Notes: a model not told the origin generated them from the sequence alone. A stretch of 64,000 nucleotides of DNA from Conexibacter sp. S30A1 (GCF_023330665.1 NZ_CP097127.1:2852001-2916000), one strand, 5' to 3'. Positions 7,782 to 35,931 are shown, numbered from the stretch's first letter. Translations and numbers: made by a program.

Positions 7782-7854
7782 GCCCCCATGGTCTAGTGGT
7801 TAGGACGCCTCCCTTTCACGGAGGAGATCGCCGGTTCGAGCCCGGCTGGGGGTA
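7782..7854 (+). tRNA. tRNA-Glu (anticodon TTC)
   Basis: The full cloverleaf is visible: acceptor GCCCCCA/TGGGGGT, anticodon arm CCTCC-CTTTCAC-GGAGG with TTC at the anticodon, and T arm GCCGG-TTCGAGC-CCGGC. CCA is not encoded. Its 3' part from 7810 is the left copy of a 48-bp direct repeat, making this gene the integration site of the large element downstream. Integration leaves the tRNA intact. Confidence 0.95.
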
Positions 7855-7857
7855 CTC
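7810..7857 (+). repeat. Left attachment repeat (tRNA-Glu 3' part)
   Basis: Identical over 48 bp to 35884-35931, starting TCCCTTTCACGG and ending GGGGGTACTC. It spans the anticodon loop to 3 bp past the tRNA. The strand-exchange point should lie within it, as is usual for tyrosine recombinases using tRNA anticodon or T arms. Confidence 0.92.
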
Positions 7858-7922
7858 AAGAAAGCCCTGCAAATCGATGGCTGTTGAGGCGATCAGAGGG
7901 TGGCAAAGTGGGGCCATTTGGG

Positions 7923-7949
7923 TTTGGCTACCACTTTTGGCTACCAAAC
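7923..7949 (+). repeat. Candidate integrase arm-type sites, left end
   Basis: Two direct copies of TTTGGCTACCA (7923-7933 and 7936-7946) lie about 70 bp inside the left repeat. The same core, TGGCTACCA, occurs four times at the right end. Short direct repeats flanking the crossover core are what tyrosine integrases bind through their N-terminal domain; the assignment is inferred. Confidence 0.55.
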
Positions 7950-8257
7950 GAGAGCCGGTTTGTCGTGGCGGGCGGGCTGTGATGCTCGCGCAGCCGGCGA
8001 GGTCGCTCGGTCGCAAGGCTGTCGGGCAGATGGCTATGCGGGCCGCTCGCGCGAGCGCCGCGCGCCCGGGGGCTCTGCTGCGGTCTGAGACAACTGCGGA
8101 TGCCAGGACGGCGTGCTTCAGTTCAACGTTTCGGTGCCGGACTCCGGCAGCGTCTCCACCGGTAGGATCAACGAGTTCGTCCAGTGCGGCAAGGCCCTGG
8201 GGCGATGGCCTCTTGCGGAACACTGAGGGCGGACGCTCGGCCTACCCGAGTCCGGGA

Positions 8258-8304
8258 TGCTTTACACGCAGGATGTCGGGGGTTCGAGCCCCTCACCGCC
8301 CATC
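8258..8304 (+). pseudogene. 3' fragment of a tRNA-Val (TAC) gene
   Basis: TGCTTTACACGCAGG contains a valine TAC anticodon loop and is followed by a T arm (GGGGG-TTCGAGC-CCCTC) and the acceptor strand ACCGCCC-A. The 5' half does not form a proper D arm or complete anticodon stem: only TGC/GCA pairs. It is therefore a 3' fragment, the footprint left where an integrative element used a tRNA-Val gene. It may belong to the truncated integrase at 32177-32722. Confidence 0.6.
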
Positions 8305-8689
8305 CATGAACCGCCTGCAAACCGGCGTATTGTTGGGCGTGTTGCTGGTCGGCTAGGGCCAGATTCGCGAAAAGTGCATCACGGGAGTGCATCATTTGGG
8401 GCTCTCCGTGGTCGAGCACGAAGTCTGCGCGCGCCATTCTCGGCCCGGCGCCAAGTGGTTGACAGCGCCCTCTCGCACGAGCGCGGTCCCGAACCGTCGG
8501 AGCGCGGGTGCGGGTGGCATCGACTCCCGGGCAGCTCGCGCTGTCCGCGGGGGTTCGGGTGCCTGAGGTTGCTGGCGGCCTCCATGGAATATGGTGGTCA
8601 TGGAAGCCGAGCGATGGGAGCTTCGCTGCACAATCCGGCGGCTGACCGCCCCACCAGCAAGTTTCAGTGAGGCCGGAACACGCCTGACG

Positions 8690-8742
8690 ACCTGGATCTT
8701 GGATTAAGTGGTCGCGTTCTGGGCTTGCGGGGGCGCGGCGCT
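8690..8742. repeat. Solitary IS1380-type terminal remnant
   Basis: CCTGGATCTTGGATTAAG and the following 35 bp match, with scattered differences, the reverse complement of the right end of the IS1380 element at 11880-11928. No transposase of that family is attached, so this is a solo end left by deletion or replacement. Confidence 0.55.
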
Positions 8743-8801
8743 TTATTGAGGCTCTCTCGGCATCGATGTGGTCAGTGTCAGCCGATTTCGAACACGTGCA
8801 G

Positions 8802-10187
8802 TTAGTGTGGGAGGTGAAGGGTGATCGGGCGGCTGGTGGGCAGGATGAGCGCGAGCGCGGCCTTGGCGCTGCGCAACCCGTAGGCACGGCGAGTGATCAG
8901 CCGGACCTTTTTGTTGAGCGCCTCAGTTCGGCCCTGGTTGATCCCGAGACGGATGGCGGCGAGGCTCCCGTCGCGGTTTGCGGATCGTCTTGCCGAGCTT
9001 GACGAACGGCTGAAGCCAGCAGCGGGCGAGGCGGCTGAGGAGTCGGTCGATCAGGACAGTGACGTCGTCGATATCCAGGCCACGCTCGAAGATGCCGCGG
9101 ACGGCTTTTTTGAGCGTGTACGCGCGCCACATCTCGCCGCCAGCGGTCTTCAGTCGGGCGAGCGTGGCGGCTTGGGCGTCGGCCAGCTTCTCGAGCTTCT
9201 TTAGCAGCGACGAGCGGGCGTCCTGGAAGCGCTTGGCGGCGTTCTGGTGGCCGCGGGAGCGCAGCTCGTTCCAGTAGGCGCGGCGGACGTCGTCAAGCTC
9301 CTGGTCGGCGAGCGCTACCACGTGGTAGGGGTCGATGCAGATCGTCGCCTGTGGCGCGTTGGCGCGGACGCTCTTGGCGTAGCCGCCGGTCGTGTCCATC
9401 GACACGACCCGCAGCTTGCCCACGCGCGCGAAGATCGCGGGCTCGATCTCCACGTCGGACTCGAGCCACGTGCCGTGGATGCCGTTGCCCGAGGGCACTG
9501 TCGGGCAGGGGCCGAACGGGACCATGATCGTCTGCTCAGACTCCCCCGACGGCTTGTAGGTATCTGCTGGCGGGTCCTGAAGCGGCGGGTCGAGATCCTC
9601 GAAGAACCGGTCGGCAGCGGCCACCACTTTGCCCTCGCATCCGCACACGATCTGACGGCGCTGATGGTCGGCGACCAAGGTGAGGTAGTTGTGCTGGCGT
9701 TTCCAGCGGACCTCGTCAACGCCGCTCTCATAGAGCTCCTCCAGACGCCGCGGATCGAGCTCGTCGTCGCAGACGCGCTTGATGATCCGCCCGACCGTAT
9801 CCCAATCGATCCGCTGCATCCGCTTGATCGTCGACCTGTCCGTCCTGGCTGCCAACCACGCGACCGGACACTCGAAGTCGCGTGTGAACTCCGAGCCCGG
9901 CCGCGCTAACAGCACCCCCGAGGTGATCGCCCCTCGCTCTGGGCACCACAACCGGCGCCGGCGGCAATGGACCTCAAACCGCCAGATGCCGAAATCCAGG
10001 TGCCGTCAGACCGAGTGCTCCGGGCGCGTGTACTTGCGCGCCCTCGTCGAGTAGCCGCACTCAGGGCAGATCAGCCACCGCCGCTTGAGCGCTACCTCGA
10101 CGACCACCCGGCCGGGCTCGAAGCGAACCTTTCACACCCATGCCCCGGGAGTCGCATAAGCCTGGAAAATGCCGTCGTGACAGGCAT
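8802..10187 (-). pseudogene. Decayed ISL3-family transposase
   Basis: The central 300 residues carry ISL3 features: RIDWDTVGRIIKRV, VVSMDTTGGYAKSV, ICIDPYHVVALADQ and a late DDE region. The gene is broken. The start MPVTTAFSRLMRLPG is followed by small indels before VRFEPGRVVVEV. The zinc-finger region (LICPECGYSTRARK) is cut by an in-frame TGA near 9998 where the family has Trp. A one-base shift near 8970 separates the C terminus, which continues as AAIRLGINQGRTEALNKKVR to the TAA at 8802. The IS1380 element sits just upstream of its start. Confidence 0.8.
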
Positions 10188-10221
10188 CGTCGTCTTCTGC
10201 TTCGGGCCGCTTGACCATCAG

Positions 10222-14551: not shown

Positions 14552-14575
14552 CGGCGTCTGGTGCATGTTTTGGCC

Positions 14576-14800
14576 ATGCCCACCAGCACCACCTACACCG
14601 GCGCTCATGCGCCAGCCACCCCACGGCTCCACGGCCTCACACGCGATGAGGTGATGACCGCCATAGAGGTCGCGGAGCTTCTCCAGCTCCCAGTCTCAAC
14701 CGTGTACTACCTCGCCAGGCGCGGGGAGATTCCCGCGTCCCGGTTCGGGCGCGCATGGCGGTTTCTACGGCCCCGGATCGAAGAAAAACTCGCGAGCTGA
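14576..14800 (+). CDS. Excisionase-type helix-turn-helix protein
   Basis: A small DNA-binding protein of the excisionase/MerR-like HTH_17 family. The core is MTAIEVAELLQLPVSTVYYL, followed by ARRGEIPASRFGRAWRFLRP: HTH plus wing. Such proteins act as recombination directionality factors or repressors in integrative elements. The ATG at 14576 gives 74 residues; an internal ATG at 14654, preceded by GAGG, would give just the HTH domain. It lies directly upstream of the relaxase gene and downstream of the iteron-like repeats. Confidence 0.75.
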   Translation: MPTSTTYTGAHAPATPRLHGLTRDEVMTAIEVAELLQLPVSTVYYLARRGEIPASRFGRAWRFLRPRIEEKLAS

Positions 14801-15008
14801 GCCTTGGTTTGTGCATGATGCACCGGCCAATCGCACAGCAGGCGGATTCCACCCTGAGCCGGAGCCCCCGGACCACCCCGGACACGGGCCGGTTCAGTCA
14901 AGGGCGACCCGGACAAGTAGGACAACTTGCGGGCCGAGCACCGAGTGCGTGGAGTGTGTCGCTGTTGATCGGGCCACTGGGCGCTCGGGTCCACGGGTGG
15001 TTGGGTTG

Positions 15009-17103
15009 TTGACGGTCGCGAAGATCACCGGTAGCGGCGCGGGCGGGTACGCCGAGTATCTGGACGGCAAGACCCGCTCAGCGGAGCTTGGGGACTACTA
15101 CCTCAAAGACGGCGAACGGGTCGAGGCACCAGGCCGCTGGGTGACCGGTGCTGAACGCTTCAGCCTCGACGGGTCAGGACCGGTGACCGGGGAGCAGCTC
15201 AGAGCGCTGATGGCGGTCAGACGCCCAGACAACGGTGAGCAGCTCAGGCGCACCGGCGGCTCGGGTGAGGCGGTCGCGGCTGTGGACGCAACCTTCTCTG
15301 CACCGAAGTCCGTGAGCGCTGCCTGGGCCATCAGCGACCGGGAGTTCCGTCAGAAGATCGAGCGGGCGCACGAGACCGCGGTTGACCGTGCGCTCTCCTA
15401 TGCGACAGGGCAGGTGCCGATGTTGCGCCGGCGTGTCAACTCCACCGAGGTGATCCACGAGAAAGCAACGGGGCTTGTTGCGACGAGCTGGCGGCACACC
15501 ACCGCCCGCGCGGTCTCAGGTCAGCTCCCCGACCCGCAACTGCACTCCCACGTCCTCTTGCACGCCGCCGTCAGACGGGACGGCCGTTTGGTGGCGATCG
15601 ACTCGCGTTCCTGGCTTGTGCACCAGCGTGAGATCGGTGCTGCGTACCGGACAGAGCTTGCGCGTGAGCTGCAGGCCCTTGGGTTTCAGATTGTGCGTGG
15701 CACGGGTCGTGGTGGCCGGTACTTCGAGATCGCAAGCATCCCGCAGAGCCTGCTTGACCGCTGGTCGAGTCGCCACCACCAGGTCAAGGCCGCGATCCGT
15801 GAGCGGCTCACCGACCGGGAGCGTGCGCTACAGACGCTGATCACCCACGGTGGCCCAGAAGCGGAGGAGGCGATCATCGAGCTTGAGCGGTTGCATGCGA
15901 CCGGGCAGCTGCCGCCGAAACAGGACCGGCTGATGGGCACTCTGACCCGTAGCGTGAAGGTGCCGGCCACCACCCAGGACCTCGACAGCGAATGGCAGCG
16001 GGAAGCGATCCGGCATCGGATCAGCCGCGAACGCCTCGAAGTGTTGCGCCACACACCCAAAACGATCCTTCAGCCGGCAAGCCCCGAACAGGTGCTGGTC
16101 GCGCTCACCGAGTTCGACTCCACGTTCGCCGCCCGCGAAGCGAGGGCAGCCGCGCTTGAGCAGTCAGCGGGCACCCCGATCCTCGCGGCGCTGGACCAGC
16201 TCCGGGCGCTCAGAGCCAGCGGTGAGATTCTGTTGTTGGCGGACGGGAGCGGCACCACCAAAGACCATCGCGGGTATGAGCGTGCGGTGATCACGATCAC
16301 CCAGCGCCTCAGCACCACCACGGTCACGCCGATCCCTGAAGAGACCACCAGGCGTGAGACGGGGCGGCTTGATCAAGAGCTCGCCGCCTATGGCGGACGG
16401 CTCTCCAACGAGCAGCGTGCCGCGATTGCCCTGGCGTGCGGTGAGCACCCGCTCGTGGTCATTGTGGGGCATGCCGGGACGGGGAAGAGCACCACCCTGA
16501 CCGGCATCGCGCGCGCACACCAGAACGCGGGCCGCCGGATAGTTGTGACAAGCACCGCTGCCGCAGCCGCGGAACGACTCGCCAGCGAGCTACAGGAACA
16601 CGGCGTTCAGTGCGTCGCGTATTCGACCGTCGGTTTGCATGCCGCCCTCAACCACGGCCGGATCGAGCTTGGGCCGGACACAACGGTGATCCATGATGAG
16701 GCCGCCCTGGCGTCAACCCGTGAGCAGCTCCGGTTGCTGCACGCCGTGGAGGTCGCTGGTGCGAGGTTGATTGCTGTTGGGGACCCGCAACAAAACCAGC
16801 CGGTCGGTGCCGGCGGCCTCTGGGACCGGATCGAGACCATGACCCGGCACACAGGCGCCCTGGTGGCGCTCACGGTCAACCAGCGCGCCCAGGACCCTGG
16901 TGACCGTCACAGCCAAACCCTGTTTCGCAAAGGCGAGACCGAGCTTGCGATCCGCACCTACGCAGCCCGCGACCGGATCCACCAAGCAGAGAACCAGCGC
17001 CTGGTCGAGGACCAGGCACTCGAAGCCGCCCACCAAGACCGGGAACAGGGGAAGACGACGCTCGTGATCGCGCAAACCTCGAATGAGCATTTGGATGAGC
17101 TGA
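15009..17103 (+). pseudogene. TrwC/MOBF relaxase-helicase, 5' part (split by an insertion sequence)
   Basis: The first about 698 residues of a conjugative relaxase that nicks oriT and unwinds the transferred strand. With the TTG start at 15009 the protein begins LTVAKITGSGAGGYAEYL, with candidate catalytic tyrosines at 14 and 17. SAPKSVSAAW and DPQLHSHVLLHAAV (metal-binding His cluster) complete the relaxase domain. Helicase motifs follow: VVIVGHAGTGKSTTL (Walker A) and AVGDPQQNQPV. The frame is then interrupted after SNEHLDEL by the DUF6431-type element. Removing that element and one copy of the 5-bp duplication gives 3,000 nt, a continuous 999-residue protein. Confidence 0.88.
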
Positions 17104-18296
17104 TGTTGACGGACATGCTGGATGGTGATGATCGCGTCATCGGGGGTGATGATCTGGGTTATGAACGACCGAACGACCAAAGCCCCTTGCAGCGTGCTCC
17201 TGTGGCCCTGGGAACGGCGGCAAGGAAGAGAAACAGGGGGCACGGGGGCGTGTGGTGGTGCGTTGCGCGTCTGTGACCGCTTCGCTTTCGCTGTTGATCG
17301 CTCGGCAGGGGCGTAGCGCCAGGACGCGGGATGTTGTCGGGGTGCGGGCGTGTGCGGTCCGAGCGATGCGACCCACCGCGCGTGGCCACCAACACCCCGG
17401 GGTCTCAGAACCCTGGTGGGTCGCGTCCCGGCCCGTGCAACAGGCCCGTCAACACCACAGCAAGCTCCCACGGTGACGCGGTGAGCTTCAGCCGTGACCG
17501 GCATGCCCGGGCCGCTCGACCGAGCGCGTCAACGGCCCCAACCAGCGGCGGGCCGGACACGATCTGTTGGTCGGCTGACGGGTCAAGCACACGCTCCCAC
17601 AGGCGGGCGGTCGTGGTGATCGCCCCGGCGCGGCGCGTGAAGGTCCGCAACCAGCCACGCACAGTTCCCGCCGGGCGCCCCAGCGTCACGGCGATCGTGC
17701 GGTGACCCTGACCATTGGCCTTGGCCAAAAGCGCCCGGCCGATCACTTCCGTTCCGTCGCGCCGACGCGCGAGCGCCCAGGCTGGAAGCAGCACGTGTGT
17801 CCGCTCGCAGCGCCGACAGCACGCTCGCCGTGGCCGCAGCAAGCGTGTCTCATCAAGCAGGCGCACGGTGCGCTCGCGCGCAAACCCCCACGGCGCAAGC
17901 GGCCCGTCACAAACCGGGCAACACAAACGCCCAGCCACCAGATCATCCTCCGCCACCACCTGCTCTGCGCTCATCGCCATCACGCACACACCACACCACG
18001 CTCCTCACCTGGCCAACGCTCCCAACGGCCCCTCCCACGAGGCCCCCGGGGGAACTCGTGTTGGAAGGCATATCAGACCCCGGTCGCACCGGCAAACGCC
18101 GCCACCAGCATGGTGATAAGCAGCATCACCGCTGGCGGCAGGGCAGCGGCCAGCACCCGCAAATTGCGGACGACTACCGCGACCCGGCCGGTCATCACCA
18201 CGATCCTGGCGTTGACCGCGACCAGCATCCGATCACATCACCACGCTCAACGACGTTTGAGGGCCCAACCGTCACCATCCAGCGTGTCGCTCAACA
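17104..18296 (-). mobile_element. 1,193-bp insertion sequence with a DUF6431 gene, inserted in the relaxase gene
   Basis: Left end TGTTGACGGACATGCTGGAT and the reverse complement of the right end, TGTTGAGCGACACGCTGGAT, are imperfect inverted repeats. A 5-bp target duplication, GCTGA, is at 17099-17103 and 18297-18301. The only credible gene is the DUF6431 protein (17405-17989). There is no DDE transposase, so the copy may be non-autonomous or internally deleted. Part of the same element recurs at 32727-32871. Confidence 0.82.
17405..17989 (-). CDS. DUF6431-type zinc-finger/HTH protein of an insertion sequence
   Basis: A 194-residue protein with an N-terminal CxxC zinc knuckle (CCPVCDGPLAPWGFARERTVRL), a second CxxC pair (CCRRCERTHVLLPAWALARRR) and a helix-turn-helix region (LLAKANGQGHRTIAVTLGRP, then AGTVRGWLRTF). 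This matches the DUF6431 proteins frequently found in actinobacterial insertion sequences, usually next to a DDE transposase. Here the partner is absent. It may be the DNA-binding subunit of the transposition machinery; a transposase role on its own is not established. Confidence 0.65.
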   Translation of the reverse strand: MCVMAMSAEQVVAEDDLVAGRLCCPVCDGPLAPWGFARERTVRLLDETRLLRPRRACCRRCERTHVLLPAWALARRRDGTEVIGRALLAKANGQGHRTIAVTLGRPAGTVRGWLRTFTRRAGAITTTARLWERVLDPSADQQIVSGPPLVGAVDALGRAARACRSRLKLTASPWELAVVLTGLLHGPGRDPPGF

Positions 18297-18301
18297 GCTG
18301 A

Positions 18302-19388: not shown

Positions 19389-19737
19389 TGCAGCTTGAGT
19401 GGGAGCTACTGCTGACGTTTCCGGGCATCGGCGGCATGCAAGGCATCTGCCACATCCGCGCCTACGAAGCACCCGGGGCATCGGCCGGTGGTGGCCGCCG
19501 ACTAGCCGCCAGACAAGCCCAGCACTTTCGTCCACAGCCCGACCGAGACGCCCGACAACACAGTCCAGGAACGTCGCTAGCCGGACGGACGCGAACCCCA
19601 GTTCGTCGCACACCACGGACCAGATGAGTTTCCCGACGGCTGCCACTTCGCGCGCCGTTCCGTCACCGAGGACCCGGACAACCACGAGCAGACAATCGTC
19701 GTCACCCAAGACCGCACACGCCACACGACTCGAATGC
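19388..19737 (+). pseudogene. Decayed hypothetical gene at the cargo boundary
   Basis: Begins convincingly as MQLEWELLLTFPGIGGMQGI and continues to about HIRAYEAPG. A one-base shift then moves coding sense to another frame (HRPVVVAAD, then PDGREPQFVAHHGPDEFPD and TEDPDNHEQTIVVTQDRT) that contains two in-frame TAG codons. The tail runs into the end of pxpC on the other strand, so the gene was probably cut when the metabolic cargo joined the mobilization module. Confidence 0.5.
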
Positions 19738-22552: not shown

Positions 22553-22582
22553 TTGACAAGCTGCCAGGCAACCAGGTAGCAT
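22553..22582 (+). promoter_or_regulatory. Sigma70-type promoter of the GntR gene, with a dyad between the boxes
   Basis: TTGACA (22553-22558) and TAGCAT (22577-22582) are separated by 18 bp, 10 bp before the gene start at 22592. The spacer contains the imperfect dyad CTGCCAGGCAACCAGGTAG, a reasonable place for the GntR protein to bind and regulate itself. Confidence 0.6.
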
Positions 22583-22591
22583 GGCGTCTCG

Positions 22592-24759: not shown

Positions 24760-24918
24760 GTTCGTTTCGGACCCAAGGACCCATGTGCCCCCGTGCCAAA
24801 GTACGCACGAGCCCAACGACGACGCCACGAGTAACGACGCCACAAAAAAACAGTATCTACGACGCTGCCGGTCCGCAGCGTCACAGCCAGGTCAAGCTGC
24901 AACAAAGGGAGGATCACT

Positions 24919-26613
24919 ATGTCAGACGCCAGCAGCCGGCTCGAGCGCTATCGACGCCAAGGGTCACCAGTCCAAGAGCACATCATAGACGAATTCGTCG
25001 ACGGTCATCTCTCTAGACGAGACTTCATACGCCACGCAACTACGGCGGGAATCTCACTGTCAGTAGTGGGAGCAATCCTGCAGGGCTCAGAGGGATCTGC
25101 GGTCGCTTCGACACCGCGCGGGCTCGCGCGCGCCGCGAGAGGGGTTGGTGCGACTATCCGCGCCGGCCAGAGCGCGCCTGGTGGCCCAGTCAATCCCCTT
25201 ACCGCTTCTACCAGCGGGGCATTTGAGACGATGCAGTTGGTGGGCGAATGGCTGACGCTTGTCGACTACGACCTTACAGTACACCCGTGGCTCGCAGAAA
25301 GCTGGGTCTCTAATCACGATGCGACGGTCTGGACGTTCAAGATCCGTGGCGGCGTCAAGTTTAACGACGGGACGCCCATGACAGTCGATGACATCGTGTA
25401 CACGTTCAAGCAGCAAGCCGACCCAAAGATCGGCGTCAACGCTGCCTCCATCTTCGGTGGCGTGCTAACACCAGATGGGGTCCATAAGGTAGGCGACCAT
25501 TATGTCCGCTTCGCGCTCGAGAGTCCTGTCGCGGCCTGGCCGAACCTCGGCGTGTCGCAGCAAAACGGAAACGTGTGTATTGTTCCGCGCGGGTACGACT
25601 GGGCGAAGTTCAACCGGGAACTCCCTGGCACTGGACACTTCAAGATGGTGAGCTACTCAGACCAGCTTGGGGGTAAGTTCGTGCGCAATCCACACTATTG
25701 GGGAAGTCCGGCTAAACCGGCGGCGATCGTTCTGAGTTACTTCTCGGACGAGCAAGCGGAGACTGCAGCTCTGTCTGGTGGCGACATAGATGTGGATGAC
25801 AGCTTTTCGGTAGCCAATAGCCCCCAGCTCCTTGGGGGCGGCTACAACGTCGTTTCGAAGGCGGCCTCGAACAACAACATGACGTCGATGCGATGTGACG
25901 CGGGAGCGTTCAGGGATAAGCTGGTCCGTCAGGCGCTGGCGCTTACGCTGGACCGTCCGGGAATCGTCAGGGCGATCTTCAAGGGGCACGCTCAGGTTGG
26001 GAATGATAGTCCGTTTGCGCCTGTTTACCCGTCGACTAATCGTGACGTGCCGCAGCGGCATCAGAACTTGAGCGAGGCGCGGAAACTGCTCGCGGCCGCT
26101 GGCGTGTCGCGAGGGTTCAAGGCGCAAATGGCGGTGGTGGATTCGCTCTCGGCGCCGGAGGTCGCGCAAATCTACAAGGAGAGCGCAGCACGAATTGGCA
26201 TCGATCTCGAACTATCTGTGATGGCGGCCAGCGAGTATTATGGGTCGGCGACGTTCGGACAATCGCCGTGGCTAGACACGACGGTCAGCATGGCTTATTT
26301 CGGTCGGGACACAGTGCCAAGCACGTTGCTGGACGCGACGCTGATGACGTACGACCCGAAGACGGGGCGCGGTGCTTGGAACAGTGCTCACTTCAGCAAT
26401 CAGAGATGCGACGAGCTCGCGGTGAAACTCGTAGGAACAGTAGATCTGGCGGTGCAACGGCGGCTCGCTGGGCAGATCGAGACATTGCTGTTAGACCAGA
26501 CTCCGGTGACGGTGCCTTATTTCGCGAACAGTTTAACCGCCATGGGCAAAGGCACGCTAGGCGTGTTCCCGGTGCCGGGTGGCCTGTTCTATTGGAACAT
26601 GACGAAGGAGTGA
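24919..26613 (+). CDS. TAT-exported solute-binding protein of a Dpp/Opp-type ABC importer
   Basis: A 564-residue SBP_bac_5 lipoprotein-like receptor. SRRDF at residues 32-36, followed by a hydrophobic stretch (TTAGISLSVVGAILQG), is a twin-arginine signal, so it folds before export. Family features include WLAESWVSNHDATVWTFKIR, GVKFNDGTPMTVDDIVYTF and RQALALTLDRPGIVRAIFKG. It captures peptides, opines or similar solutes for the permeases downstream. GGGAGG lies 8 bp upstream of the ATG. Confidence 0.9.
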   Translation: MSDASSRLERYRRQGSPVQEHIIDEFVDGHLSRRDFIRHATTAGISLSVVGAILQGSEGSAVASTPRGLARAARGVGATIRAGQSAPGGPVNPLTASTSGAFETMQLVGEWLTLVDYDLTVHPWLAESWVSNHDATVWTFKIRGGVKFNDGTPMTVDDIVYTFKQQADPKIGVNAASIFGGVLTPDGVHKVGDHYVRFALESPVAAWPNLGVSQQNGNVCIVPRGYDWAKFNRELPGTGHFKMVSYSDQLGGKFVRNPHYWGSPAKPAAIVLSYFSDEQAETAALSGGDIDVDDSFSVANSPQLLGGGYNVVSKAASNNNMTSMRCDAGAFRDKLVRQALALTLDRPGIVRAIFKGHAQVGNDSPFAPVYPSTNRDVPQRHQNLSEARKLLAAAGVSRGFKAQMAVVDSLSAPEVAQIYKESAARIGIDLELSVMAASEYYGSATFGQSPWLDTTVSMAYFGRDTVPSTLLDATLMTYDPKTGRGAWNSAHFSNQRCDELAVKLVGTVDLAVQRRLAGQIETLLLDQTPVTVPYFANSLTAMGKGTLGVFPVPGGLFYWNMTKE

Positions 26614-26693
26614 CGCCAGCGTGAACGCGACCCACAACGGGCTAGATGTGGCGCCGATGGCGGCATCGACTATTAGCGCAAGGCGGTGAGGGA

Positions 26694-27737
26694 ATGCAAC
26701 CGAACGATCGCGATTGGGTGAGCCTGGCGCTGCCCATGATTGGCAGTAGTACCCCCACGGCATACGGAAGACCGTTTGTTCGTGAGGACGATGGGTTTCA
26801 GGATGCTGACGCGGTGTTCATGGGAATCCCGTGGGCGGCACCCGTGCGACCCGATCTTGCGTTCACGGGGGGCGGCGCGAACTTCGGGGTAACGGGTATG
26901 AGTCCAGGGATATTCCGACGGGCGTCGTTACGCCATCGCGGTGGGTTCCTACTTGAATTGAACATGGCAATCTTCGATCGTGTGAAGCTGGTTGATTCTG
27001 GCGATGTCGCTGTGAGCGGCGACATGGAGGAGATGCTGCAGCGAATCGAGGCGCGCACGCGCGCCATCAGACGCGCCGGATGCGTGGTGATCAGCTATGG
27101 CGGTAATGCGGGCCCATCCTCGTACCCAGTGATCAGCGGAATCGCTCAAGAGGCGGACGGTGAGGTCACCATCGTCAACTTTGACGCGCATGGTGATAAC
27201 AGGCCTGGCGACTGGCGTGCTGAGGACCCCGCGTTCTCAAGCTGGGGAAGTAGTTGGGTGCATCAAATGCTCGAACGACCGGACATCGATGCGCGCCGCT
27301 TCTACCACGTAGGGCTGCGCGGACCGGTTAACGACAAGCGTGTGGTTGACCGATTCCGAGATCTTGGCGTTGAGCGGGCGCAGATTCTGGACCCAGGTGC
27401 GATAGGCCGCGCCCGGCAGGCGGGCTTTGCAGAATGGGCCGCTGCGTGGGCCGCGGAGGTGGTGGCGGAGACGCCCGCCGTATGGATCGCGATCGACGTT
27501 GATGTCCTGGATATGGGCTCGAATCCAAGCTTCGTCGGCGAGCCCTTCGGGCCGAGCGCCGACGAACTCATTTTAATGGTGGAGGCGCTCGCACGAGCAG
27601 CCGGCCGGCAACGGCTCGCCGGGCTGTCGTTTATGGCCGTCCCGCCCGGGGCCGCTGAGTTGCATGTGATCGCATCCCACGCACTCTTGCACTGCCTAGC
27701 TGGCATCGCTCCTGCTGTTCAGGACGGTCGCCCATGA
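26694..27737 (+). CDS. Ureohydrolase (arginase/agmatinase fold) with an altered first metal motif
   Basis: 347 residues from the ATG at 26694 (GGTGAGGGA just upstream). The fold is that of agmatinase/arginase, which removes urea from guanidino compounds using two Mn ions. DAHGD (164-168) and DVD (268-270) supply five of the six usual ligands. The first motif, normally GGDHS, reads GGNAG (136-140), so the first His ligand and its neighbouring Asp are absent. It may bind one metal, use another residue, or have lost hydrolysis. It lies between the solute-binding protein and permease genes of the importer. Confidence 0.78.
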   Translation: MQPNDRDWVSLALPMIGSSTPTAYGRPFVREDDGFQDADAVFMGIPWAAPVRPDLAFTGGGANFGVTGMSPGIFRRASLRHRGGFLLELNMAIFDRVKLVDSGDVAVSGDMEEMLQRIEARTRAIRRAGCVVISYGGNAGPSSYPVISGIAQEADGEVTIVNFDAHGDNRPGDWRAEDPAFSSWGSSWVHQMLERPDIDARRFYHVGLRGPVNDKRVVDRFRDLGVERAQILDPGAIGRARQAGFAEWAAAWAAEVVAETPAVWIAIDVDVLDMGSNPSFVGEPFGPSADELILMVEALARAAGRQRLAGLSFMAVPPGAAELHVIASHALLHCLAGIAPAVQDGRP

Positions 27738-27873
27738 GGCTAGAAATCATTCGCGTGCCACCTGGCCGCGGCGCAGGCTGGCGCGACATGAACCGGAGTG
27801 CTGGTCGAACCTAGGTGCGTGACACATATTCATTTATGTAGTCAAGCGTGTCGGCGCGGCGCTGCTGACGCTG

Positions 27874-28773
27874 GTGTTGCTCACGATTCTCGTTTTCGTA
27901 GCGGGTCAAGTCCTCCCGGGCAGTCCAGGGCGAGAGATCCTCGGCAACAGCGCGTCACGCGCTGCTGTTGCGGCTCTCGACAAACAACTCGGTTTGAACA
28001 GGTCGCTGTTTACCCAATACCTTCGCTGGTCCGGTGGCATCTTGCACGGCGATCTTGGCGAATCGTATGAGTATCGCGCACCCGTTGCTGGCCTCTTATG
28101 GCCCGCGTTGCTTCGCTCACTTGAGCTGGGAGGCTTGGCATTCGTGATTGTGGTGCCAACGTCGCTGGCCGCAGGCGTAGTCACGTCGCTATACCGAGGC
28201 AGACGCCTAGACTGGATAATCACGACGCTTGGGTCTTCACTCGCTACAGTGCCTGAGTTTGTGTCGGGCACGATCCTGATCGTCGTATTTGCACTAGGCC
28301 TGAAGTGGCTACCCGTTGAGGCCGAAGCCCAGGGCAGCTTCGGTAGCAGACTGGTATCCCTCCTCTTGCCCGCGTTGTCACTAGACGGTGTCATCTTTGG
28401 GTACATCCTCAGGGTGGCGCGCGCGGGCATGGTCGATGCCCTCGAGTCAGACTACGTTCGGACCGCCACACTGAAAGGACTCCCGCGTTGGCAAGTCGTC
28501 CGTCGGCACGTGTTGCGGAATGCGTTGTCGCCCGCAGTCACCGTGATCGCAACTGAGGTGAGCTTTTTGATCGGCGGGCTTGTCGTAATAGAAACCCTAT
28601 TCAACTATCCTGGGCTCGGCCGACTAATCTATCAGGCAGCGCAGTACAAGGACTTCCCTATGCTTGAGGCCGGAGTCCTCGTAATCGGTGTGGTTTTCGT
28701 GCTCGGCACTTTGATCGCGGACGTGCTTTACGTAGTCCTCAATCCCCGCGTCCGCTTCGAAGCGAGCGACTGA
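27874..28773 (+). CDS. ABC importer permease, DppB/OppB type
   Basis: 299 residues from the GTG at 27874. About six membrane helices; the EAA loop, which docks the ATPase, is VDALESDYVRTATLKGLPRW then QVVRRHVLRNALSP. The family N-terminal helix seems to begin earlier: in frame upstream is VVKRVGAALLTLV, but no ATG, GTG or TTG precedes it before the stop, only an ATT near 27,831. The native start may have been mutated or a rare ATT start used. Confidence 0.85.
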   Translation: MLLTILVFVAGQVLPGSPGREILGNSASRAAVAALDKQLGLNRSLFTQYLRWSGGILHGDLGESYEYRAPVAGLLWPALLRSLELGGLAFVIVVPTSLAAGVVTSLYRGRRLDWIITTLGSSLATVPEFVSGTILIVVFALGLKWLPVEAEAQGSFGSRLVSLLLPALSLDGVIFGYILRVARAGMVDALESDYVRTATLKGLPRWQVVRRHVLRNALSPAVTVIATEVSFLIGGLVVIETLFNYPGLGRLIYQAAQYKDFPMLEAGVLVIGVVFVLGTLIADVLYVVLNPRVRFEASD

Positions 28774-28812
28774 TGCTGCTCCCTATCTTAGACCGGCGGT
28801 CTGATAGCCATC

Positions 28813-29736
28813 ATGAACGTGCGCTCTACGCAGACGACTGAGCCGCAGGGCGAGCGCGGTGACCTGGGCGGCGTCACCGGCGGCGAAGCCCGTAAGACCG
28901 CCAGACACGAGCTCGAGAACCCGCGATGGACGATGCTGTTCCGGTCACGCGCGTTCCAAGCTGGGGGCGTGGTGCTCCTGTTCTGGGTCGTGTGCGCAGC
29001 ATTCGGGGAGCTATTCGTGCCGTACGGTCCCCTGGTGCAGAACTTCAACGCGATCAATCAAGCCCCGTCACTGGCGCACTGGTTCGGGACCGACAATCTC
29101 GGCCGCGACGTGCTATCGCGGGTCATCGCCGGCTCGCGGACGATTTTGATCATCGCTCCGTTGGCCACTGGCGTTGGCGTCGTGGGCGGTACGGTACTGG
29201 GTCTGGCTCAAGCGTACTATCGAGGGGTCGCTGACATGATCACGGGCAGGCTGGTGGAAGCTGGCTTAGCCTTGCCCACCGTGATTGTTGCGTTTTTGTT
29301 CATCGTGGCGCTGGGACCGTCGACAGCGACGCTCGTGATCGTGATCGGGTTAGCCTTCGCATTGATCGTGTCTCGTACGGTGCGGACGGCTGCGCTGGCC
29401 GAGCGGGAGCTGGACTACGTTGCCGCGGCAGGACTGCGGGGCGAAAGCGGACCGTACGTGATGTTTGTCGAAATGCTTCCCAACGTCCTGCCACTGATTT
29501 TCGTAGAGTTCACAATCAGACTGGGTTATGCGATCTTTACCGTTGCATCGCTATCGTTCCTCGGCCTCGGAGTGCAGCCGCCGACGCCAGACTGGGGAGC
29601 CGACATTGCTGCAAGCTATCAGTATCTGTCTGCCGGATATTGGTGGGAAACCCTGTTTCCAGCGCTGGCTATTGTTTCCTTGGTCACGGCAATCAATATG
29701 ATCAGTAGTGCGCTTGAGAGTACGTTCATAGGGTGA
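28813..29736 (+). CDS. ABC importer permease, DppC/OppC type
   Basis: A 307-residue permease with a cytoplasmic N-terminal tail, a first helix at VVLLFWVVCAAFGELFVPYG, the DppC motif HWFGTDNLGRDVLSRVIAGS and the EAA loop ALAERELDYVAAAGLRGESG. It pairs with the DppB-like protein to form the membrane channel. It follows that gene by 39 bp in the same operon. Confidence 0.88.
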   Translation: MNVRSTQTTEPQGERGDLGGVTGGEARKTARHELENPRWTMLFRSRAFQAGGVVLLFWVVCAAFGELFVPYGPLVQNFNAINQAPSLAHWFGTDNLGRDVLSRVIAGSRTILIIAPLATGVGVVGGTVLGLAQAYYRGVADMITGRLVEAGLALPTVIVAFLFIVALGPSTATLVIVIGLAFALIVSRTVRTAALAERELDYVAAAGLRGESGPYVMFVEMLPNVLPLIFVEFTIRLGYAIFTVASLSFLGLGVQPPTPDWGADIAASYQYLSAGYWWETLFPALAIVSLVTAINMISSALESTFIG

Positions 29737-29854
29737 GCGGCGATGAGCTCTGTTACGTTTAACCGCAAAGCGATCACGTGGTCTAGGCTCACCTCTAGGC
29801 GCGAGCGGCCGCTTAGAGGAAAGAATAGCCGATGCCTCATGCAGGTGACTGTTA

Positions 29855-32011
29855 ATGCGGCGGTTACTGAAGCCGGGCACCCGACAGGAGCTGTGCACGG
29901 TCATGCCGGACCAGCCGGTGCCGATCCGAGGGAACAGGTGTGCAGCCGTGCGGCCTGACGAGATGGCAGATGTCCCTTTGGCCGTGAACGGTGGGCGCAA
30001 GACTAAGGCTTTAGGGCTGGAAGTGTCTCACCTTGAGGTGTGCTACAGAGTGCGCGGCGTGGACCTTCCGATATTGAGAGACGTGAGCTTCGAGATCGAT
30101 GTTGGCGAGTCGTTTGGACTCGTGGGCGAATCTGGATGCGGCAAGTCCACGGCCGTGCAGGCGATCACGAGCTATCTGGCGCGAAACGGGAAGGTGACCG
30201 GCGGACAGGTCTTGGTCCGGGGACGGGACATCGCGAGACTGGGCAAACCGGAGCTTCGAGAGCTGCGCGCCAGAGATATCTCTGTCGTGTACCAGGAGCC
30301 TGGGAGGGCACTCACGCCATCCGTGAGGATCGGCCACCAAGTCGCCGAGGTGTTTCGGGTTCTAGGGGCGTCCAAGATGGAGGCTATGCAGCGGGCCCGC
30401 GACGCGCTCGATGCGGTACAGATCCCAGACGGGCCGCGGGTGATGGGCGCCTATCCGCATGAGCTTTCCGGGGGAATGCTCCAACGCGTTGTGATCGCGA
30501 TGGCGATCGCGTCTGAGCCTACGCTCCTGATACTCGACGAACCGACGACCGCGCTCGACGCGACCGTTGAAGCTGAGGTGTTGGAACTGGTGGCCTCGCT
30601 CAGGCAGCGGTTGGTAATGTCGACGCTGTTCATCAGCCACAACTTGGCGGTCATCTCAAAGATGTGTGATCGGGTAGCTGTGATGTATGCGGGAGAGATC
30701 GTCGAACAGGGGTTGGCCCGAGACGTCTTGGAGAGACCCCAGCATCCGTATACGGTCGGCTTACTGCGGTGCATTCCGAAGCGGACTCAAAGGAAGGACC
30801 GAGATCGACTTGACACGATCCCTGGATTCTTGCCCGAGCCGGGCCTGATGCAGGTCGGATGTGTGTTCGCGCCGCGGTGCGCCTTAGCTGACGACGGATG
30901 CAGGGCTGATGCGCCACCAGTGTTTGACGTGGGGAAGGAACATCTCTCGAGGTGCTTTAAGCACCGCGAAGCGGAGAGCATTCCACGCATAGATAATGCT
31001 TCCCGATGCCTAACGGCAACACCAGCCGAAACCGAGCCGCTGGTTCGGCTTGAGCGCGTGTCAAAGACCTTCCCTGGTCGTAAAGGCGGGCGGGTCAGTG
31101 CACTTAACGACATCGATATCGAGTTATACGCAGGGGATACGCTTGGAGTGGTGGGCGAGTCCGGGTGTGGCAAGACGACCCTGGCGAGGATACTGCTTGG
31201 GCTAACGGCGCCTGACCCTGGCTCGCGGGTCGAAATTCGCGGCGAGGCGGCCGCGCCGATCGTAGCGAATCGCTCCAGAGAGCAGTTAAAGCTGGTTCAG
31301 ATCATATTTCAGAACCCTGACGCCGCGCTCAATCGCCGTCACAGCGTCGGCCGCATCATCGGCAGGGCCGTCACAAAGCTCGGCGGCTTGAAGGGCGGCG
31401 AAAGGCAGCAGCGCATAGCAGACGTCGTGGGTTCGGTACGGCTGGAGCCACGCCACCTAGCGATGCGGCCGGCTCAGCTCTCGGGTGGCCTGAAGCAGCG
31501 GGTCGCGATAGCTCGTGCGTACGCGGGCAGCCCCAGCGTGCTCGTGTGTGACGAGCCGACGTCGGCGCTCGATGTGTCGGTCCAGGCCGCGATTTTGAAC
31601 CTACTCGTTGACCTGCAGCAGGATGAGCATATTGCTTACGTATTCATCTCTCACGATCTTGGCGTCGTGCGCTATCTCGCCGACCGCGTGCTGGTTTTGT
31701 ATCTGGGGCGCGTCATGGAATACGGTCCCGCAGCGGCGGTGTTCGCCGGGCCGCACCATCCATACACGGAAGCGCTTCTGTCAGCAGTCCCGACCCTCGA
31801 TCAGAAGGCGGACGAAAGGATCAAGTTGACGGGCGAGATACCAAGCCCGTCAGAGCCGCCGACTGGTTGTGTGTTCAATACACGCTGCCAGCGGCGGCTG
31901 CCTGACGGTAAGTGTAGCCAGGAAGAACCACCCTTGCGCGAGCTCGCGCCTGGCAGAGCCATACGCTGTCATCTGTCACTAGAGAGTTTGGGCACTGCTG
32001 CAGGGCAGTAG
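29855..32011 (+). CDS. Fused double ATPase of the ABC importer (DppD-DppF type)
   Basis: A 718-residue protein holding two ABC ATPase domains in one chain. Domain 1: Walker [10 protein letters not shown] (about residue 91), signature [10 protein letters not shown], Walker B LLILDEPT. Domain 2: Walker [10 protein letters not shown] (about 433), signature [10 protein letters not shown], Walker [13 protein letters not shown]. Each ends with the Cys-rich oligopeptide-ATPase tail ([16 protein letters not shown] and [17 protein letters not shown]). DppD and DppF are usually separate genes. The start is uncertain; M at about 29963 ([10 protein letters not shown]) is likely. Confidence 0.88.
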
Positions 32012-32176
32012 CCCGACACGGTAACCACCGCATCGTAGACCTCCGAGAAGGGGCGAGGTACCAGGCAAAAGCCGCTTTCTTGGTCGGCCGAGGGCGTCAG
32101 ATCACGGTGGCTTTTCGTGTGGCGGGCGAGTGTGAACGGCCGCAGGTGAAGTTGAGGACCGGGACGTGCGTGCTGT

Positions 32177-32722
32177 TCACGAACGGTCTGTAAATGCCGC
32201 GGTGAATGCGGCGGCGCGCTCGTTCGCTGGGCGGGTGTGGAAGTAGCGGCTGGTAGTCGGGAGTTGGGAGTGTCCGAGGGCGTCTTGGACGCTGACGAGA
32301 TCCACGCCTCTGGCGATCAGGAGCGACCCGAGGGTGTGGCGTAGGTCATGCCATCGCAGCGGTCGAAGCCCGGCGGCGACGCGCGCGCGTTTGTACCGGC
32401 GCCGTGACGCGGAGCCGTCGAGCGGTCGGCCGAGGGCGTTGGCGAACACGAAATCGTCAGGCGCTGTGTAGTCGGCTCTCTGGCCAAGCCGTCTGAGGGC
32501 TAGTCTCGCTTGGTCGGCTATTGGTACGCGCCGCACCTCTCCAGATTTAGTGGGGCCTTCGATCCCGGCGCTGATCGCACGGCTGATCGTCAAGGCCGCT
32601 CCGGGCATATCGATGTCGCGCCAGCGCAGTGCGAGAAGCTCGCCGAGCCTGAGTCCTGCGTAGGCGGCCACTCGCACCGCCTCGGCGCTCTGGTGGGTCC
32701 TCCCGCAGCTCGTTCTGGTCAC
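32177..32722 (-). pseudogene. Tyrosine integrase, N-terminal part lost
   Basis: Only the catalytic domain of a phage-type integrase remains, about 170 residues. It keeps AAYAGLRLGELLALRW (catalytic Arg), TKSGEVRRVP (Lys), LRPLRWHDLRHTLGSLL (His/Arg) and LGHSQLPTTSRYFH (His, Tyr). The DNA-binding N-terminal half is replaced by a fragment of the DUF6431-type element ending at 32727, and a small frame error is present just at the junction. It is related to, but distinct from, the intact integrase at 34435. Confidence 0.8.
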
Positions 32723-32726
32723 GGTG

Positions 32727-32871
32727 GGTGTCGAGCGACCCGCCGGGTGGCGACGGCTCGGGCGTCAAACGTCGTTGAGCGTGGCGATGTGATCGGCTGT
32801 TGATCGCGGTAAACGCCAGGATCGTGGTGATGACCGGCCGGGCCGTGGTGTTCGTCCGCAATTTGCGGGCC
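32727..32871. mobile_element. Fragment of the DUF6431-type insertion sequence
   Basis: About 145 bp matching the reverse complement of the right end of the element at 18150-18296, from the terminal repeat (TGTCGAGCGACCCGCCGGGT) through CGTCAAACGTCGTTGAGCG and a stretch ending CCGCAATTTGCGGG. It truncates the integrase on the left and is cut by the IS3 element on the right. Confidence 0.75.
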
Positions 32872-34139
32872 TGACCTGAGGTTCCCCCAAGACCGTGGAG
32901 GCTCCAGCTATGAGGAGTCCCGATGTCAGAGAGCGGGAAGAAGTCAGGTCAGGAGTTCAAAGCGAGCGCGGTCGGGATTGTTCAGGAGTCCGGCAAGCCG
33001 ATCGCTCAGATAGCCCGGGATCTGGGTGTGGGTGAGGGCACCCTGGGTAACTGGGTTGCGAAAGCGAGGGCCGCAGCTGACCCGGGCGGTCTCAAGGCCG
33101 GATGAGCGTGAGGAGCTCTGGGCAGCTGCGGGCGCAAGGTCGCGACATTGCGGATCGGGGCGTGATGTCCTCTGAGCGATCCGTGGTCCTCTGGGCGGGG
33201 GAGGCGACGAGGTGACGGTGGCTTGCTTTGATCGCTTGATCAGAGGACCCGCTTCCGTGTGCCACACGCCGCGTGCTGCCGGCTTTTGGGGGTGTCTGTG
33301 TCGTGGTTCTACAAATGGACGGGCCGTGCCAGCAGCGGTGAGCGGAGCGTCTCTGAGACGCGCCGCCAGGCGCTGGATGACCCGGTCGCTTTAGCGTTTG
33401 AGAAGGCGAAGGGCAGACACGGCTCACCGCGGCTGCTCGTCGACCTGCGCGAGGCCGGCTGGACGGTCTCAAGAGAAGACTGCTGGCCGCCTCGATGCGC
33501 CGACAGGGGCTCATCGCGCGCCGGATCCGACGTCGTCGCAACACAACCCGGCCGGATAAGACCAGAAAGCCGTTTCCTGACCTGCTGCGCCGTGATTTCA
33601 CCGCCCGTGGCCCGAACCTCCGCTGGGTCGGGGACATGACCGAGATCCCCGCCTGAGGGCACGGCAAGTTCTATCTGGCGACCGTGATCGATCTGTACTC
33701 CCGTCGTTGCCTGGCCGCGTGCACGAGCATGAGCGCGAACGCGACCCTGGCTCGCTCAGCGATCCAGACCGCGGTCGCGGCCCGTGGCGGGCCTGGTGCT
33801 GTCCACAACGTCATTTTCCACACCGACCAAGGAGCCACATACACGGCGCAGCGGTTCACCAGCCTGTGCCGACAGCTCGAGATCCAACAGTCGATGGGCC
33901 GTGTCGGGTCGTTTCTTGATAACGCCGCTGCCGAGGCGTTCTTCTCCTCGCTGGAATGGGAGGTCCTCCGTGACGCCGAGTTCCGCGACCTCGAGCACGC
34001 CCAAGCCGCCACCCAACAGTGGTGCTACGGGTTCTACAACCACATCCGACGTCACAGCCATATCCTGCAGATGAGCCCAGTCAACTTCGAGGCACTAGCC
34101 GCATAGATCAACCCTCCACGATCCGGGGGGAACCACAGT
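32872..34139 (+). mobile_element. IS3-family element, decayed
   Basis: Inverted repeats are near 32872-32901 (TGACCTGAGGTTCCCCCAAG) and 34111-34139, whose reverse complement runs GTGGTTCCCCCCGGATCGTG. Between them is a broken orfA/orfB pair. The left end abuts the DUF6431-type fragment. Confidence 0.75.
32923..34106 (+). pseudogene. IS3-family transposase orfA/orfB, broken
   Basis: orfA starts MSESGKKSGQEFKASAVGIV with the HTH IAQIARDLGVGEGTLGNWVA but stops after 60 codons. Sense is then scattered over frames (LLGVSVSWFYKWTGR, GSPRLLVDLREAGWTVSRE). The DDE domain reads NLRWVGDMTEIPA, a TGA at 33655-33657, then GKFYLATVIDLYSRRCL, FHTDQGATYTAQRF and MGRVGSFLDNAAAEAFFSSL to the end. A frameshift near 33,480 and the stop make it non-functional. 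Confidence 0.85.
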
Positions 34140-34434
34140 CGTTCGATGGGCCGACCGCGTGGACGCCATTGGGCTGGCCAGAGACTCTAAACAGTCTAGT
34201 GCGCTCGCGGGAACGATGCTGCCCAAAGGGGGCAGGTAAGGGTGCCGCCAACCCGTCCAGCGTGTAGCTAAGAGGAGCCGAGAGCGTCGCAAGAGGTTCT
34301 TTGGGGCAACCAGTGCGCACGGAAGTGGTCAACTATTGTCGGTGGCGGTAGCCGGAGTTCTCTAAGCGGTTGGGTCTCCTCCGGGGGAGCACGCCGTCCG
34401 GGGGTATCTGGGATGCGGGACCGAAAGGGGCCAG

Positions 34435-35763
34435 TCAGTGTGCCAGTGCAGGCTGGCTCGCACTTTGAGCGGCGAACGCGGCTGTGAACGCGGCTGCTTG
34501 CTGGGTGGCGGGGCGTGCGTGCAGGTAGCGCTCCGTTGTCGTGATGCGCTCGTGTCCCATGGCTGCTTTGACGGTGACGGTGTCGATCCCAGCAGCAACA
34601 AGGAGCGATCCGAACGTGTGCCTGAGGTCGTGCCAGCGCAGTGGTCTGAGGCCGATCGCGTCGCGCGCCCGGTTGTAGCGGCGCCCGAGCGCGGTGGCGT
34701 CGAGATGACGTCCGTAGGCGTTGCACAGCACCAGGTCGTCAGGGCCTGTGAAGTCCCGACGGTGCGACAGCCGTTCAAGCGCGGCGAGCGCTTGATCGGA
34801 CAGTGGAACATCCCGGAAGCTGCCGCTCTTGGGCGAGCCCTCGACACCGAGGCTGAGCGCTCGGGACACGGTCAGCTTGGCGCCGGTCCAGTCGATGTCC
34901 TTCCAGCGCAGCGCCACAAGCTCGCCGCGCCGCAGACCGGTGTATGCGGAGAGCCGCACCGCCTCCGCGTCCTGTGCATCCTGTCCAGCTCGGCGCTCGA
35001 GCTCCGCGGCATCGCCGTCACCCACGCGGGTGCGGTGCACGCCAGTCTCGAGCGCCCGGGCCAGCGCTTCGATCTCTTCTGGCGAGAAGTACAAGAGCGG
35101 CGCTGGTTTGGGCTCGCGCCGAAGCTCGATCCCGACGGTCGGGTTCGCTTCGAGCTTGAAGCGGCCGGTGGCGCGCCTGGCTCCGTGGTTGAAGATCGCC
35201 GCGATCAGGTTGCGGTGCTTGTTGACGTTGCGTGCCGACATGCCGCTTGCCGTCATCGACGACAGCAACCGGCGCACGTCCTCGCCGGTGATGTCTGCGG
35301 CGAGACGATCGCCGAGCTCGCGCATGATCCGGCCCTGGGCGACGCCGGCGCCGCGCCGGTGCGACGTTCCGGGCTCGGCCAGCTTGTAGGAGTGATCACG
35401 CAGCGTCGTCGGCTTTGCGCCGTAATCCGTCTCAAGCCAGCGCATGTAGTCGGCAGCGAGCTCGCGGAAGGTGGCGCGCTGCACTACACGACCGCTCTTC
35501 GGTTTCTCCGCCACATACGCGGACACCAGCTCCGCGGCCCGCACATGCGCGCGACGCTCGTCGAAGTAGCCCTCGGGAACCCGGCCCTTGCGTGGCACCC
35601 AGACCCGGCCGGGTCCCGGTTCAAGCCAGGCGGGACCGATCCGGCGCATCACCTGACGCTCCGCGTCACGGAACTTCGCTTCGTAGTACGGCTTGCCGTT
35701 ATGGGACCTGATCACGAGCGTCGGAGTGGTGGTCATGAGCCCATCATACGCTTTGGCTACCAC
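34435..35763 (-). CDS. Tyrosine integrase of the 28-kb element
   Basis: A 442-residue recombinase with an arm-binding N-terminal domain (about 14-60), a SAM-like core-binding domain (95-200) and a catalytic domain. All catalytic residues are present: Arg278 (TGLRRGE), Lys312 (SPKSGSFRDVP), His378 and Arg381 (RWHDLRH), His404 (MGHERIT) and Tyr413 (TERYLHA). An ATG at 35736 (MTTTPTLVIRS) is the more likely start than that at 35763, which overlaps a TGGCTACCA repeat. Its position 120 bp inside the right attachment repeat marks it as the enzyme that integrated the element. Confidence 0.93.
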   Translation of the reverse strand: MVAKAYDGLMTTTPTLVIRSHNGKPYYEAKFRDAERQVMRRIGPAWLEPGPGRVWVPRKGRVPEGYFDERRAHVRAAELVSAYVAEKPKSGRVVQRATFRELAADYMRWLETDYGAKPTTLRDHSYKLAEPGTSHRRGAGVAQGRIMRELGDRLAADITGEDVRRLLSSMTASGMSARNVNKHRNLIAAIFNHGARRATGRFKLEANPTVGIELRREPKPAPLLYFSPEEIEALARALETGVHRTRVGDGDAAELERRAGQDAQDAEAVRLSAYTGLRRGELVALRWKDIDWTGAKLTVSRALSLGVEGSPKSGSFRDVPLSDQALAALERLSHRRDFTGPDDLVLCNAYGRHLDATALGRRYNRARDAIGLRPLRWHDLRHTFGSLLVAAGIDTVTVKAAMGHERITTTERYLHARPATQQAAAFTAAFAAQSASQPALAH

Positions 35764-35802
35764 GTGGCTACCAAATTGATCTGGCTACCAATTTGGCTAC
35801 CA
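35752..35802 (+). repeat. Candidate integrase arm-type sites, right end
   Basis: Four direct copies of TGGCTACCA (35754-35762, 35765-35773, 35782-35790, 35794-35802) lie between the integrase start and the right attachment repeat, matching two at the left end. The first overlaps the upstream integrase start codon, so integrase binding could also repress its own gene. Confidence 0.6.
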
Positions 35803-35883
35803 AACAAGTCTGACATAGCGTTTTTACAGGCATTTTCGCAACGCTAAACTGCCCGTACTTACTGAGATGACACCCTCTTCCTA

Positions 35884-35931
35884 TCCCTTTCACGGAGGAG
35901 ATCGCCGGTTCGAGCCCGGCTGGGGGTACTC
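35884..35931 (+). repeat. Right attachment repeat (tRNA-Glu 3' fragment)
   Basis: A 48-bp exact copy of 7810-7857. Upstream bases differ (CCTCTTCCTA), so no tRNA can form here. An IS701-like element begins 2 bp after its end, with target duplication TACTCG overlapping the last bases. Confidence 0.92.

What the first reader, a model, noticed from the sequence alone, without database searches (positions are those of the whole stretch)
7810..35931. A 28-kb integrative element in tRNA-Glu with exact 48-bp ends
Perfect direct repeats at 7810-7857 and 35884-35931, an intact integrase beside the right copy, and a relaxase/excisionase module inside define a whole element. The insertion leaves the tRNA functional. 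No secretion or coupling genes are present, so it would need a helper to transfer. The boundaries are read directly; mobility is inferred.
Basis: partly seen in the sequence, partly recalled or inferred. Interest (0 to 1): 0.85.

Follow-up and report, generated by a model that had tools for sequence, protein, structure and literature searches.

The report
Decayed integrative element in tRNA-Glu
A 28-kb piece of foreign DNA carrying nutrient-uptake genes inserted itself cleanly into a glutamate-tRNA gene of a soil-type actinobacterium; its ends and integrase look intact, but its transfer genes are broken, so it is a stranded member of an ordinary kind of mobile element.

Summary
Exact 48-bp repeats lie at 7810-7857 (3' part of an intact tRNA-Glu) and 35884-35931, none expected by chance. 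An integrase with all catalytic motifs sits beside the right copy. TGGCTACCA repeats, probable integrase arm sites, occur twice inside the left end and four times inside the right. A same-genus genome (G012) carries a 29.3-kb element at the same tRNA-Glu with the same repeat, a 79% identical integrase, the same arm layout and unrelated cargo, which confirms the boundaries independently.

The TrwC (MobF) relaxase gene is cut at codon 765 by a 1,193-bp IS with a 5-bp duplication. The coupling-protein gene that lies between excisionase and relaxase in two sister modules of this genome is deleted. So the element can probably still integrate and excise, but its own transfer module is dead; it is not simply waiting for a helper. 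It is also a mosaic, with a truncated second integrase of another clade and a tRNA-Val 3' half with different arm repeats. Cargo: peptide-type ABC transporter, arginase-family and threonine-synthase-like enzymes, PxpBC. Older integrase debris lies outside the right repeat. New member of a known kind.

The parts
7782..7855 (+). tRNA-Glu (TTC), target gene, 3' part supplied by the element
   Evidence: ARAGORN and Rfam
7810..7857 (+). left 48-bp repeat (attL core), from the anticodon stem to 2 nt past the tRNA
   Evidence: exact match to the right copy, 0 expected; same core in sister element G012
7925..7946 (+). two left arm-type repeats TGGCTACCA, 13 bp apart
   Evidence: same layout in G012, G017, G020
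8258..8305 (+). tRNA-Val(TAC) 3' half followed by GTGCATCA arm repeats at 8374 and 8387: left end of a different, tRNA-Val-type element (fossil)
   Evidence: 83% identical to own genome 2627420-2627606
8750..10216 (-). ISL3-family IS, 79% to another copy in the genome
10219..11934 (-). IS with a DDE_Tnp_1_4 (IS1380-like) transposase, 98.8% to another copy in the genome
13316..13702 (+). glyoxalase/bleomycin-resistance-fold protein
   Evidence: Pfam
14561..14800 (+). small HTH_17 / MerR-like protein, probable excisionase
   Evidence: Pfam, PHROGs excisionase
14811..17103 (+). TrwC (MobF) relaxase, N-terminal part up to codon 765
   Evidence: Pfam; homologues align only to residue 765
17104..18296 (-). 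1,193-bp IS inserted in the relaxase gene, terminal inverted repeats, 5-bp duplication GCTGA; 98% and 93% copies elsewhere in the genome
18297..19206 (+). detached C-terminal helicase part of the relaxase gene
19702..21314 (-). PxpC-like and PxpB-like (5-oxoprolinase-type) genes
22592..32011 (+). cargo operon: GntR/FCD regulator, threonine-synthase-like PLP enzyme, SBP_bac_5 binding protein, arginase-family hydrolase, two Opp-type permeases, fused Opp ATPase
32177..32722 (-). truncated second tyrosine integrase of a Met/Arg-tRNA-targeting clade
32725..32869 (.). end of the same IS kind as 17104-18296, abutting the truncated integrase
32889..34145 (+). decayed IS3-like element (rve domains); ends read by eye
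34435..35763 (-). intact tyrosine integrase
35754..35802 (+). four right arm-type repeats TGGCTACCA
35884..35931 (+). right 48-bp repeat (attR core)
35933..37497 (-). recent IS (DDE_5 transposase) just outside the element, duplication TACTCG, 100% identical copy at genome 3100890-3102454
37577..37696 (-). third, decayed integrase fragment outside attR: debris of an older element
38139..39080 (-). older flank segment shared with G020 (about 88-92%)

Best explanation
This is a genomic island inserted by its own tyrosine integrase into the 3' part of tRNA-Glu, with crossover in the anticodon-loop region; the 48-bp core restores the tRNA. It descends from an element with an excisionase - coupling protein - MobF relaxase module. 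It then decayed: the coupling gene was deleted and an IS split the relaxase gene. It now carries a catabolic cargo probably used to import and break down a peptide-, opine- or guanidino-type nitrogen compound. Shown: ends, arm repeats, integrase, IS in the relaxase, loss of the coupling gene relative to sister modules, sister element at the same site. Inferred: that the integrase and excisionase still work, that the core is exchanged at the anticodon loop, that the TGGCTACCA repeats are bound by the integrase, and what the cargo does.
For: Exact 48-bp repeats, one forming the 3' part of tRNA-Glu. Sister element in G012 at the same tRNA with the same core, 79% integrase and different cargo. Arm repeats 2 left + 4 right in both. 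Integrase motifs intact. Relaxase homologues of 1,070-1,103 aa open frame align only to residue 765; residues 762-821 match a multi-copy IS; IS bounded exactly with a GCTGA duplication. In two sister modules of the own genome PF02534 coupling proteins (2709575-2710792, 102560-103732) lie between excisionase and relaxase; the window joins the two directly. Cargo arginase-family gene absent from 27 genus relatives and from the other 248 class genomes searched.
Against: No reads or PCR show excision. No base-precise empty site was found: relatives either carry other element ends at this tRNA or have a different flank. The right flank is rearranged between relatives.
Confidence: 0.88

Rival explanations
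1. It is a working integrative and mobilizable element that only needs a helper conjugative system.
For: Relaxase nicking domain (N-terminal) is still an open frame; integrase and excisionase look intact. The genome holds sister modules with coupling proteins and longer relaxases that could act in trans.
Against: Relaxase gene split by an IS with the helicase part detached; coupling gene deleted. The only VirB4-type (PF12846) hit above cut-off in the genome is a separate chromosomal locus.
Confidence: 0.1
2. Composite formed by accretion: a tRNA-Val-type or Met/Arg-type element first, later taken over by the Glu-type integrase and core, so the 28 kb moves as a unit only because the outer ends are Glu-type. 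(This can be true together with the best explanation; it concerns how the unit arose.)
For: tRNA-Val core with a different arm repeat 400 bp inside the left end; truncated second integrase in the Met/ArgACG clade, 97/98 support; IS-rich joints.
Against: The second right-hand core of the inner element is not found, and the fragment's clade does not match the tRNA-Val core, so the two fossils may come from different elements.
Confidence: 0.45
3. Defective prophage or satellite.
For: Tyrosine integrase and HTH excisionase match phage families.
Against: No structural, packaging or replication phage genes among the scanned ORFs; relaxase and transporter cargo instead; no close integrase in viral contigs, best 27-32% over part of the protein.
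Confidence: 0.02
4. The repeats are two unrelated tRNA fragments and the 28 kb is ordinary chromosome.
For: Region is rearranged between relatives.
Against: Same core, arm layout and integrase in G012 at the same tRNA; cargo gene unique to this genome.
Confidence: 0.01

Closest known systems
tRNA-integrated genomic islands with tyrosine integrase (Islander-type; PMC4383910)
   Same: integrase beside one end, tRNA 3' part duplicated at the other end, target gene restored
   Different: nothing essential; mosaic with two further integrase fossils
Integrative and mobilizable elements (IMEs; PMC5704250)
   Same: ancestral module with excisionase and relaxase and no recognised mating-pore genes nearby
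   Different: relaxase is MobF/TrwC, a family the 2017 review lists for no known canonical IME; two sister modules in the own genome carry their own coupling protein; this copy is broken
CIME / decayed element with tandem accretion (PMC5704250)
   Same: loss of transfer genes, debris of an older element next to attR
   Different: keeps an intact integrase, so it is not a true CIME
T4SS-based ICEs of Actinobacteria with TrwC relaxase (PMC3218068)
   Same: TrwC relaxase and VirD4-type coupling protein in the sister modules
   Different: no VirB4-type gene found with these modules; that survey's main text does not mention Conexibacter, Solirubrobacter or Thermoleophilia
G012 element at the same tRNA-Glu
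   Same: core, arm repeats, integrase (79%)
   Different: cargo unrelated at DNA level; no relaxase among the eight G012 ORFs scanned

Membership tests
tRNA-integrated genomic island | direct repeat of a tRNA 3' part at both ends | tested here: met
tRNA-integrated genomic island | intact tyrosine integrase inside, next to one end | tested here: met
tRNA-integrated genomic island | target tRNA remains intact | tested here: met
tRNA-integrated genomic island | empty or differently filled site in relatives | tested here: met
   differently filled in G012; other or no element ends in G020, G024, G006, G008 and others; base-precise empty site not found
Integrative and mobilizable element (IME) | encodes its own functional relaxase | tested here: not met
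   relaxase gene interrupted by an IS
Integrative and mobilizable element (IME) | no mating-pore genes | tested here: met
   Pfam scans of predicted ORFs
Integrative and conjugative element (ICE) | relaxase, coupling protein and mating-pore genes | tested here: not met
   coupling gene absent
CIME | att sites kept but integrase and transfer genes lost | tested here: not met
   integrase intact
Integrative element (any) | excision to a circle | not testable with these tools
   needs PCR or reads

The most novel reading that the evidence does not exclude
The genus harbours a family of integrative elements with a MobF relaxase plus their own VirD4-type coupling protein but no mating pore, whose integrases have repeatedly switched tRNA target (cores from Glu, Ala, Arg, Met, Asp, Val, Gly and Trp tRNAs) while arm repeats vary separately; they may use a conserved chromosomal VirD4/VirB4-like locus as transfer machine. 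The window's element would be a decayed member.
Probability: 0.2. Interest if true: 0.6.

Novelty: new member of a known kind. Interest (0 to 1): 0.36.

Why it matters
It gives two well-bounded elements at one tRNA site in an actinobacterial lineage (Solirubrobacterales, judging by the named relative) for whose mobile elements the literature searches here found no dedicated study. Together with the genus-wide integrase set it allows a direct test of how tyrosine integrases change tRNA target while keeping the same attachment-site layout. The relaxase and coupling-gene damage also shows how an element can look mobilisable by gene content alone and yet be stranded.

Tried and rejected
Prophage reading rejected. 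A defence-cargo reading was tested on unknown ORFs with PADLOC and gave nothing inside the element. The idea that the truncated second integrase belongs to the tRNA-Val core was tested: its nearest relatives have Arg(ACG) or Met cores, so it is not supported. A search for a base-precise empty site with the right flank found only fragments elsewhere. The arginase-family protein has no solved relative below E 1e-10 and stays below the agmatinase cut-offs, so its substrate is not named. A literature search gave no study of mobile elements of this order.

Full report
WHERE IT IS. The window is positions 2852001-2916000 of a single-contig genome of 3,458,291 bases.

OBSERVATION. The 48-bp repeats at 7810-7857 and 35884-35931 are exact, and no third copy exists within 3 mismatches; shuffles give none. 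The left copy begins in the anticodon stem of an intact tRNA-Glu(TTC) at 7782-7855 and ends 2 nt past it. The integrase at 34435-35763(-) has a Phage_integrase domain and its R, K, HxxR, GH and Y motifs between residues 275 and 415.

ARM SITES. TGGCTACCA occurs six times in the window where about 0.4 is expected: at 7925 and 7938, and at 35754, 35765, 35782 and 35794. All six lie just inside the two ends. This is the layout expected of arm-type sites of a two-domain tyrosine integrase (established knowledge; binding itself not shown).

SISTER ELEMENT. G012 carries the same NUDIX gene and tRNA-Glu, followed by a 29.3-kb element bounded by the same core (47 of 48 positions) with a 79% identical integrase and the same 2+4 arm repeats. 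At DNA level nothing else inside is shared, so this is a real insertion unit with exchangeable cargo. Six of eleven tRNA-Glu loci examined in the genus have arm-like repeats about 70 and 83 bases downstream of the core; five do not (G024 has one repeat only).

TRANSFER MODULE. An excisionase-like HTH protein (14561-14800) precedes a TrwC relaxase. Homologues in the genus reach open frames of 1,070-1,103 aa, but align to the window gene only up to residue 765; the window's residues 762-821 recur at several other places in the genome. The cause is a 1,193-bp IS at 17104-18296 with inverted ends and a GCTGA duplication. The gene resumes at 18297, and two further copies of the IS lie at genome 2700619-2701816 and 2706470-2707663. 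In the sister modules at genome 2709575-2710792 and 102560-103732 a PF02534 coupling protein lies between the excisionase-like gene and the relaxase. In the window these two genes are joined directly, so the coupling gene was most likely lost by deletion. At genome 3110612 and 2324974 and in other genomes PF02534 proteins also lie next to the relaxase, but the excisionase was not placed there. The genome has one PF12846 match above cut-off, in a separate chromosomal locus.

MOSAIC. Inside the left end is a tRNA-Val(TAC) 3' half followed by GTGCATCA repeats at the same offsets as the Glu arms. Identical or near-identical tRNA-Val cores occur elsewhere in the genome and genus, some as complete tRNA genes and some as orphan halves. 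A truncated second integrase (32177-32722) falls in the Met/ArgACG clade, not with the Glu integrases. A third integrase fragment lies outside the right repeat at 37577-37696, and segments homologous to the chromosomes of G020 and G024 resume by about 41048. The IS just outside the right repeat is 100% identical to a copy at 3100890-3102454, so it is recent.

CARGO. 19702-32011 encodes PxpB/PxpC-like proteins, a GntR/FCD regulator, a threonine-synthase-like enzyme (NF006050, 585 bits against a cut-off of 303), a peptide-type binding protein, an arginase-family protein, two permeases and a fused ATPase. The arginase-family gene is found only in this genome among 28 genus and 249 class genomes at the thresholds used. 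G+C over about 24000-32000 is 59-63% against mostly 65-71% around it. A role in uptake and breakdown of a nitrogen compound is inferred.

INTEGRASE FAMILY. In 24 of the integrase loci examined a tRNA 3' half sits about 130-320 bases upstream of the start of the aligned integrase segment. Read by their anticodons these are Glu, Ala(TGC), Ala(CGC), Arg(ACG), Arg(TCT), Met, Val(GAC), Asp, Gly and Trp (isotypes read by eye). Many have a short repeat present up to four times between integrase and core. On a tree of the integrases the own Ala-type integrase lies inside the Glu clade (100/100 and 97/91), so target changes occur among close relatives.

LITERATURE. Insertion at the tRNA anticodon loop is classical (PMC8371274). 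A 2017 review lists no canonical IME with a MobF relaxase (PMC5704250).

VERDICT. The element is an ordinary tRNA-Glu genomic island, most likely derived from a mobilisable ancestor, with integration functions that look intact but a broken transfer module.

Noticed in passing
G000:C1:2171032-2173819 (L156:11033-13820): A VirD4-like protein (PF02534, TraG-D_C) next to a VirB4/TraG P-loop-like protein. All 28 genus genomes have a PF02534 match, though the call does not show that every one is this locus; possible conserved transfer-like machine.
   Followed up: partly
window 8258-8305; G000:C1:2627447, 97956, 2838182; L119, L120, L123, L127, L128: Orphan tRNA-Val(TAC) 3' halves, most followed by paired arm-like repeats, without the 5' half of the tRNA; their partner integrase was not found.
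   Followed up: partly
window 41529-45107: 1,192-aa protein strongly matching PADLOC DpdE (SNF2-type helicase, 700 bits), just right of the island.
   Followed up: no
window 46179-46466: 18-nt tandem repeats in a minus-strand ORF (45695-46660), probably a collagen-like Gly-X-Y protein.
   Followed up: no
window 55949-56084 and 6537-6621: 17-nt tandem repeats, function unknown.
   Followed up: no
G012:C27 against the window: The segment left of the window's NUDIX gene lies inverted to the right of the G012 element, ending at tRNA-Val: rearrangement around this locus.
   Followed up: partly
L058-L097: Arm-repeat motif and tRNA target of the genus integrases vary separately: TGGCTACC is used by elements with Glu, Ala, Met, Arg and Val cores.
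   Followed up: partly
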